Shown: positions 10,766 through 35,390 of the stretch, in pieces
How positions within the stretch are numbered: position 1 is the stretch's first letter
How the letters are laid out: each line of letters starts with the position of its first letter
Assembly: GCA_013297755.1 (NCBI GenBank)
Contig: JAAFIH010000035.1
Coordinates: forward strand, 1 to 40,710
Direction of reading: 5' to 3'
Origin: Cytophagales bacterium
Lineage (GTDB): Bacteria > Bacteroidota > Bacteroidia > Cytophagales > UBA9547
DNA length: 40,710 nt
The notes under the pieces: model-generated
The model's database searches: none
The model's input: the letters and a program-made list of their open reading frames with translations, nothing else
What the model was told of the DNA's origin: nothing
Position numbers and translations under genes: made by a program

Positions 10766-10872
10766 ATTGAATCGAAAAACAAATATTACAACTTTATTTT
10801 AAATCCATTTTTTAATTTCTCCCCAAGTGGGAGAAAAATTATAAGAATGTAATTTTAATTTTTCGGTTTGAT
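10766..10872. repeat. Nested palindromic intergenic element
   Basis: A roughly 107-bp stretch folds on itself. The outer arms at 10766-10779 and 10859-10872 match at 11 of 14 positions, and the centre is a perfect 8-bp stem TTTCTCCC/GGGAGAAA with loop CAAGT (10816-10836). It lies between convergent genes. The central stem resembles the TTTCTCC/GGAGAAA hairpin inside the two MITE-like copies at 22.2 and 35.3 kb, although the ends differ. Confidence 0.4.
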
Positions 10873-21923: not shown

Positions 21924-22217
21924 ATGAGATTTGTAGATGTAACCAATGATATAGCTTTTAGAAAAATTTTCGGAAACGAAAACAAGAAAACTACATTGAT
22001 ATCATTTCTCAATGCAGTGATAAAACTGCCCGAAAACAACAAAGTTGAATCAGTACAAATTTCAAATCCTTACCAATTACCAAAATTGGCTGGGGGCAAA
22101 TCAACGATTGTAGATGTAAAAGCCACCGACCAAGCAGGCAATACATTTATAGTAGAAATGCAAGTAACCGAGGCCGATTTTTTTCATAAATTGAAAAAAT
22201 ATAAATCTTTTTATTAA
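21924..22217 (+). pseudogene. Truncated Rpn-family PD-(D/E)XK nuclease/transposase
   Basis: 97 residues equal to the N-terminal third of Rpn (recombination-promoting nuclease, PDDEXK_2) proteins, which are usually near 300 residues. Visible are VTNDIAFRKIFGNEN at the start and the nuclease core IVDVKATDQAGNTFIVEMQV, with Asp and Glu-x-Gln of the D...(D/E)xK/Q motif. The frame then ends at KYKSFY plus TAA, just after the core. A full-length relative lies at 38429-39250. A MITE-like element begins 17 bp after the stop, which suggests this locus has been rearranged. It probably encodes no active enzyme. Confidence 0.75.
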
Positions 22218-22234
22218 AATTAGTAATCTTTAAA

Positions 22235-22325
22235 CATAGACGTTTACTTAAGAATCAGATTATCTTTCTCCTTTGGAGAAAGACTAAGATAGAGGCAATA
22301 AAAAATGCTTAAGTAAACGACATTT
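22235..22325. mobile_element. MITE-like element, copy 1 (91 bp)
   Basis: Same 91-bp length as copy 2 at 35290-35380 and nearly the same interior (GATAGAGGC analogue, CAATAAAAAATG, hairpin CTTTCTCC-TTT-GGAGAAAG). Terminal inverted repeats are CGTTTACTTAAG and CTTAAGTAAACG, with the outer six bases decayed on the left. The flanking 10-mers AATCTTTAAA (22225-22234) and AATATTTAGA (22326-22335) agree at 8 of 10, consistent with an old target-site duplication. It contains no ORF and would depend on a transposase encoded elsewhere. Confidence 0.75.
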
Positions 22326-22448
22326 AATATTTAGATTTAGATTTAAACTTGAACTTTAAATTTCTTTAAAATCAATTTTTAAATACCATGATAGCAATAA
22401 TTACTATATTGCTTTGTTCTTTTTTTTAATTAAAAATAAATATTTTTA

Positions 22449-35279: not shown

Positions 35280-35390
35280 AAATATGTATCAATGTCGTTT
35301 ACTTAAGAATCCTTTTAACTTTCTCTTTTGGAGAAAGACTAATATAGAGGCAATAAAAAATGCTTAAGTAAACGACATTGAAATATGTAT
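35280..35390. mobile_element. MITE-like element, copy 2 (35290-35380) with 10-bp target-site duplication
   Basis: The 91-bp element has perfect 18-bp terminal inverted repeats, CAATGTCGTTTACTTAAG at 35290-35307 and its complement at 35363-35380. It is flanked directly by AAATATGTAT at 35280-35289 and 35381-35390, a perfect 10-bp target-site duplication. Inside is a hairpin CTTTCTC/GAGAAAG. There is no ORF, so it is non-autonomous. It sits about 70 bp upstream of the slyD start, in the same orientation as copy 1. Confidence 0.88.

What the first reader, a model, noticed from the sequence alone, without database searches (positions are those of the whole stretch)
35280..35390. MITE-like element with perfect 18-bp inverted ends and 10-bp target duplication
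The element and its duplication are intact, so this insertion is recent. A same-length copy at 22235-22325 has diverged ends and an 8-of-10 duplication. Two copies in 41 kb suggest many in the genome. The internal stem differs by C to T in copy 2 where RNA pairing (G-U) is kept, so a role as a transcribed hairpin is possible. It lies about 70 bp upstream of slyD and may sit in its leader.
Basis: seen in the sequence. Interest (0 to 1): 0.65.

Follow-up and report, generated by a model that had tools for sequence, protein, structure and literature searches.

The report
IS4-type MITE family in Bacteroidia genome
A 91-base stowaway element that carries no gene and is probably copied by the enzyme of a larger jumping gene sits near an ordinary gene here, as do perhaps a hundred or more relatives elsewhere in the genome; it is a new example of a familiar kind and shows no sign of doing a job for the cell.

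Summary
In detail: a 91-bp element (35290-35380) with perfect 18-bp inverted ends and a perfect 10-bp flanking duplication, and a decayed copy at 22235-22325. It is a MITE. In the part of the genome held, 62 profile matches were extracted; 42 have at least 8 of 10 flanking bases duplicated (4.0% with permuted flanks), only at offset 10. I estimate 100-200 copies per genome. Letter-perfect empty target sites exist in the same genome. The same ends cap an insertion sequence whose body is unassembled; one insertion shows an identical 10-bp duplication across two contigs. Its transposase termini are homologous to a congener's 1417-bp IS4-family element; ends and duplication fit published subgroup IS4. 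The RNA-hairpin idea is not supported: the C-to-T change marks a subfamily, and stem changes mostly break pairs. The copy is absent near slyD in the five relatives examined. Elements with the same ends, 10-bp duplications and other interiors occur elsewhere in Bacteroidia. New member of a known kind.

The parts
35290..35380 (+). MITE copy 1, 91 bp, 18-bp perfect terminal inverted repeats
35290..35307 (+). left terminal inverted repeat CAATGTCGTTTACTTAAG
35363..35380 (-). right terminal inverted repeat
35280..35289 (.). target-site duplication AAATATGTAT, left copy
35381..35390 (.). target-site duplication AAATATGTAT, right copy
35319..35337 (+). internal hairpin CTTTCTCTTTTGGAGAAAG (8-bp stem, one G-T pair)
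   Evidence: no covariation support
22235..22325 (+). MITE copy 2, 91 bp, decayed outer ends
22225..22234 (.). target-site duplication of copy 2, left (aatctttaaa)
22326..22335 (.). target-site duplication of copy 2, right (aatatttaga), 8 of 10 identical

Best explanation
A non-autonomous miniature element (MITE) moved by the transposase of a resident IS4-family (subgroup IS4) insertion sequence with the same 18-bp ends. The transposase binds the ends, and insertion at an A+T-rich 10-bp staggered target leaves a 10-bp duplication. Shown here: shared ends, the 10-bp duplication in both MITE and IS, dozens of copies, filled and empty versions of one target, and homology of the IS's two transposase termini to an IS4-family element of a congener. 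Inferred: that this IS's transposase mobilises the MITE by cut-and-paste, and that the copies have no host function and decay neutrally after insertion.
For: 62 profile matches in 547,154 held bases (overlaps included; one element is split into two matches by a nested insert). Duplication identity is 0.76 at offset 10 against 0.32-0.39 at offsets 6-9 and 11-13; 42 of 62 match at 8 or more of 10, permuted control 4.0%. Four contigs end 127 bp inside an IS with the same end. C2 and C70 flanks across the IS are both AATGTTATAC. The C-terminal 34 aa are 52% identical over 33 aa to the congener's transposase, and an N-terminal stretch 48% over 71 aa. Both pieces of the congener's frameshifted transposase match NF033592, IS4 family transposase (E 3.9e-15 and 6.3e-10). 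Ends agree at 7 of 7 specified positions with the published subgroup IS4 consensus. Copies nested in another repeat family have unoccupied counterparts with a single GAATGTAATC. Two identical copies lie at different sites with different perfect 10-bp duplications (C12:183333 and C12:188516).
Against: No complete transposase of this IS is visible in the assembly. PF01609 finds only two other transposases in the genome, and neither was returned by the congener-transposase search. The congener's copy is frameshifted, its pieces score below NF033592's whole-protein cut-off and below Pfam's (17.9 bits, cut-off 23, one piece; none for the other), and its YREK lysine is one residue off the usual spacing (read by eye). 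Only one of the IS insertions could be paired across contigs. 20 of 62 matches have duplications of 7 or fewer of 10. The MITE interior is not an obvious piece of the IS (by eye), so it is not a simple internal deletion. G002, of the same genus, has no clear copy (best E 0.077).
Confidence: 0.93

Rival explanations
1. A transcribed regulatory or stabilising RNA hairpin kept by selection, for instance in the slyD leader.
For: The 91-mer folds strongly on either strand (z -7.88 each); 58 of 59 classified matches lie between mechanically called genes, two of them overlapping a gene end by 17 bp.
Against: Strong folding follows from the inverted ends alone. Mean divergence is 8.4% in the internal hairpin, 8.3% in the right interior and 7.7 and 9.9% in the ends. 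42 broken cells against 3 double changes in the hairpin. No preference for pair-keeping changes. No strong orientation bias to the gene (38 same, 28 opposite upstream; 30 and 20 downstream). No terminator-like site, and promoter-like hits at the shuffle level, near copy 1. No Rfam match at gathering scores in the window.
Confidence: 0.04
2. A REP/BIME-type repeat moved by a RAYT (Y1-type) transposase, not a DDE-transposase MITE.
For: Intergenic, hairpin-forming, high copy.
Against: 10-bp target duplications, letter-perfect empty sites and long inverted ends shared with an IS4-type IS are not expected of REP elements (general knowledge). RAYT genes were not searched for.
Confidence: 0.01
3. An old conserved intergenic element shared by descent at orthologous loci, not mobile.
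For: The congener G001 has one clear copy and one partial.
Against: No match at E below 0.1 in five slyD loci and four copy-2 neighbour loci of relatives (one stray match at E 0.67). The G001 copy has its own 10-bp duplication AATTGTAAAT.
Confidence: 0.01

Closest known systems
IS4 family, subgroup IS4 (PMC2266710, passages read)
   Same: Ends -AATR--------WTW (7 of 7 positions), duplication of 10 bp within the stated 10-13, congener IS of 1417 bp within 1400-1650
   Different: The MITE has no transposase; the own genome's IS body is not assembled
MITECca01 of Cardinium (PMC9769881, passages read)
   Same: Bacteroidota MITE of high copy (169 reported) with ends like its resident IS, mostly intergenic
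   Different: About 240 bp, parent of the IS982 family
MITEs of Porphyromonas gingivalis: BrickBuilt, MITE239, MITEPgRS/MITE464, MITE700 (PMC4596501, passages read)
   Same: Non-autonomous Bacteroidota elements sharing ends with resident ISs
   Different: IS5-family-like ends, around 10-20 copies, other lengths
IS231-derived mobile insertion cassettes (recalled; only a search listing seen)
   Same: Non-autonomous elements mobilised by an IS4-family transposase (recalled)
   Different: Bacillus cereus group, larger, with passenger genes (recalled)

Membership tests
MITE (non-autonomous DDE element) | short, no transposase gene, terminal inverted repeats | tested here: met
   62 profile matches of 84-92 bp as extracted; some have decayed, cut or interrupted ends, 4 have both 18-bp ends perfect
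MITE (non-autonomous DDE element) | target-site duplication of fixed length | tested here: met
   10 bp; 42 of 62 at 8 or more of 10, permuted control 4.0%
MITE (non-autonomous DDE element) | multiple dispersed copies and empty sites | tested here: met
   copies; empty sites:
MITE (non-autonomous DDE element) | resident autonomous element with the same ends | tested here: inconclusive
   IS ends with matching TIRs at or near contig breaks in C2, C16, C43, C44, C70, C24 and C54; body unassembled, so an intact transposase is not shown
MITE (non-autonomous DDE element) | mobilised in trans by that transposase | not testable with these tools
   needs a transposition assay
IS4 family, subgroup IS4 (parental element) | end consensus -AATR--------WTW---- | tested here: met
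   7 of 7
IS4 family, subgroup IS4 (parental element) | direct repeats of 10-13 bp | tested here: met
   AATGTTATAC on both sides of the IS between C2 and C70; one insertion only, the other IS ends could not be paired
IS4 family, subgroup IS4 (parental element) | IS4-type DDE transposase | tested here: inconclusive
   congener pieces match NF033592 at E 3.9e-15 and 6.3e-10, below its whole-protein cut-off; own IS only by homology of both termini
IS4 family, subgroup IS4 (parental element) | YREK motif Y-2-R-3-E-6-K (spacing recalled) | tested here: inconclusive
   congener: Y, R and E spaced right, K one residue late (read); own IS not assembled there
IS4 family, subgroup IS4 (parental element) | length 1400-1650 bp | tested here: inconclusive
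   congener IS 1417 bp fits; own IS length unknown
Structured RNA element | compensatory changes in the stem | tested here: not met
   3 double changes against 42 broken of 454 cells

The most novel reading that the evidence does not exclude
One 18-bp IS4-type end (CAATGTCGTTTA[G/C]TTAAG) has been captured again and again by unrelated interiors, giving a class-wide set of MITEs in Bacteroidia (91 to about 330 bp, 10-bp duplications). In the window's genus the MITE ends may track the resident IS's variant at position 13 (C in one species, G in its congener), so MITE and transposase would be co-evolving.
Probability: 0.35. Interest if true: 0.35.

Novelty: new member of a known kind. Interest (0 to 1): 0.2.

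Why it matters
It gives a well-supported example of an IS4-type MITE family in a little-studied Bacteroidia genus, with its end sequence, target length, empty sites and likely parent, and it accounts for several assembly breaks and many intergenic repeats of this genome. It also shows that a strong fold and a G-U-keeping change are not by themselves evidence for RNA function in an inverted-repeat element.

Tried and rejected
RNA role: folding, pair counts, per-site divergence, gene context and promoter/terminator scans gave no support. The recalled Bacteroidota promoter pattern TTTG-N17-23-TANNTTTG has 9 matches in the window (5.64 expected), none at either element. Own genome by PF01609: two other transposases, 497- and 623-aa frames. 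Solved structures: two matches at E 0.23 and 0.84, neither a transposase. The genome-contig scan with the congener transposase gave one locus, 100% identical to the query, so in effect the congener itself. A paper search for the letters CAATGTCGTTTA gave one paper, on a human protease (listing only); no title listed points to this family, and I read passages of three papers. My first reading of the IS's N-terminal frame (first checkpoint note) was wrong; one search shows the homologous frame. A 9-of-10 inverted match between the flanks of C43 and C16 (two like IS ends, read by eye), which would fit a composite element, was not pursued.

Not examined or left out: slyD loci in G003, G005 and G008 (3 of the 8 found) and copy-2 neighbours in G005 and G008 (2 of the 6 best matches). 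Genes upstream of slyD were not syntenic in the loci searched, so the exact empty site of copy 1 was not seen. Five of the 62 matches were dropped before the 57-row alignment: four belong to three copies interrupted by other elements, one copy is cut at one end. Three of 62 were unclassified in the context count. Gene calls there are mechanical ORFs. At least six places were not fetched and are not among the 62. Some duplications are not independent (two C7 copies at one target, two adjacent C14 copies).

Full report
What is there. The window holds a 91-bp element at 35290-35380 with 18-bp perfect inverted ends and a 10-bp duplication (35280-35289, 35381-35390), and a more decayed copy at 22235-22325 with an 8-of-10 duplication. 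The end motif with up to 3 mismatches occurs 4 times in the window against a mean of 0.08 in shuffles.

It is a family. A search of the window's own genome (4.24 Mb, 70 contigs) gave 171 first-look candidates, of which 40 were scored; 42 distinct places have E 2.5e-13 or better. The 14-bp end core with at most 1 mismatch occurs 132 times against 1 for the reversed control. A profile search of two whole contigs and the window found 20 copies at E up to 0.01 in 425 kb; the best hit in reversed sequence had E 3.0. Density gives about 200 copies per genome; scaling by end-core hits gives about 106. The two contigs were chosen after they had shown hits, so density is likely high; I say 100-200.

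It transposes with a 10-bp duplication. From the held stretches 62 profile matches were taken; two of them are halves of one element split by a nested insert. 14 have a perfect 10-bp duplication and 42 match at 8 or more of 10, against 4.0% when right flanks are permuted; the other 20 match at 7 or fewer. Mean identity is 0.76 at offset 10 and 0.32-0.39 at offsets 6-9 and 11-13. Targets of the 33 matches with 9 or 10 of 10 are A+T-rich. Two copies 5 kb apart in opposite orientation are identical but sit in different perfect duplications.

Empty sites. Copies at C7:20849 and C7:9706 lie inside another interspersed repeat family (41 matches listed, 111 first-look candidates of which 40 scored). 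Other members of that repeat carry the same stretch with a single GAATGTAATC and no insert, letter for letter (L190, L192, L194, L195); further members differ by a base or two there. This shows directly that insertion duplicated 10 bp at C7:20849. The two nested copies belong to different subfamilies at the same site, so either the site was hit twice or one copy was converted; I cannot tell which.

The parent. Four contigs (C2, C16, C43, C44) end exactly 127 bp inside an element that starts with the same 18 bp. Three others hold its other side at their edge: C70 and C54 near their start, C24 at its end; the C24 and C54 ends differ from the 18-mer at two or three positions. The C2 flank and the C70 flank are the same AATGTTATAC, so at this place the IS made the same 10-bp duplication; the remaining ends could not be paired. 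Its visible termini encode transposase: the last 34 aa are 52% identical over 33 aa, and an N-terminal stretch 48% over 71 aa, to the transposase of a 1417-bp IS in the congener G001, whose ends are the same but for position 13. That transposase is frameshifted; its two pieces each match the NCBI model for IS4-family transposases, under the whole-protein cut-off, and only one matches PF01609, weakly (17.9 bits, cut-off 23). The published subgroup IS4 end consensus, length range and duplication range fit (PMC2266710, passages; 7 of 7 positions). The G001 IS contig is matched at 100% over the 224-aa query by a record titled 'MAG: Bacteroidetes bacterium isolate PH2015_06S_32_163', so G001 is probably that assembly; the window's own species could not be named.

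No sign of a function. Median divergence from consensus is 8.8% (range 1.1-23.1%) in 57 aligned copies. Mean divergence is 7.7% and 9.9% in the ends, 8.4% in the internal hairpin, 8.3% right of it and 17.1% left of it, where subfamily positions lie. Of 454 hairpin cells, 379 keep the commonest pair, 30 change one side with pairing kept (20 at the subfamily position), 3 change both, and 42 break; slid registers pair far worse, as they must for a stem taken from the consensus. By mechanical gene of 59 classified matches lie between genes (two overlap a gene end by 17 bp, one lies inside a called ORF, three were unclassified), where the coding fraction is 86%. They fall in tandem, divergent and convergent gaps 34, 16 and 8 times, against 48%, 27% and 19% of intergenic positions (6% at edges), with no strong orientation. 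Near copy 1, promoter-like hits are at the shuffle level and no terminator-like site is found.

The slyD copy. The downstream gene has an FKBP_C domain and the upstream gene is DUF3822. Of eight slyD loci found in relatives, five were examined (G001, G002, G004, G006, G007) and none shows the element in the roughly 1.5 kb held upstream; the DUF3822 gene was not found next to them either, so this is absence at the gene, not an exact empty site. The copy is perfect in ends and duplication, but its closest relative among the aligned copies differs at 3 positions; 'recent' is fair only relative to the family.

Wider distribution. The end with C or G at position 13 occurs exactly in 10 of 395 genomes drawn from the class, own included. 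In several of them it closes short elements of other lengths and interiors. Reading by eye, 10-of-10 duplications flank elements of 144 bp (L135), 328 bp (L138), 181 bp (L137), 164 bp (L141), 167 bp (L156) and 167 bp (L158, in locally repetitive sequence), most with one imperfect end; 9 of 10 flank L134, L139 and L150; others show weak or no duplications (L132, L133, L140, L154). In the window's own family of genomes, only G001 has a clear relative of this MITE (82% over 90 positions) and a partial one; G002 and the seven others searched have end-sized or chance-level matches. The G001 copy (90 bp) has a perfect 10-bp duplication, and one of its two ends carries the G variant of the resident IS, the other a T. 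This is the most interesting lead, but it rests on few genomes.

Noticed in passing
window, about 10770-10872 (C29:10810-10872); own genome, 41 matches listed: A second interspersed repeat family (ending ...TTAATTTTTCGGTTTGAT, with a TTTCTCCC..GGGAGAAA hairpin), present in the window and at high copy in the genome; at least two copies serve as targets for this MITE.
   Followed up: partly
L068, L070, L121, L122, L127, L186: A third MITE-like family with ends CAGGGCAAACGCATTTAA, about 140-190 bp, with 9-bp duplications at L121, L122 and L127; two copies lie at the same point of the hairpin in the present MITE (C70:24702 and C70:86314).
   Followed up: partly
window 21924-22217: A 97-aa frame matching the first part of the PD-(D/E)XK nuclease family transposase model (PF12784, positions 2-83 of 229) just upstream of MITE copy 2.
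   Followed up: no
contig ends G000:C43 and G000:C16: Flanks of two like (C-terminal) IS ends are inverted near-matches (CTTACCAAAA and CTTACCAAAT, 9 of 10), which could mean a composite element or be chance.
   Followed up: no
G285 (same class; loci L133, L141, L147, L151, L154, L156, L158): 25 exact copies of the end pattern; the ones listed are the G variant, and six of the seven loci held show a partner end 145-373 bp away; no match to the congener transposase was found in this genome.
   Followed up: partly
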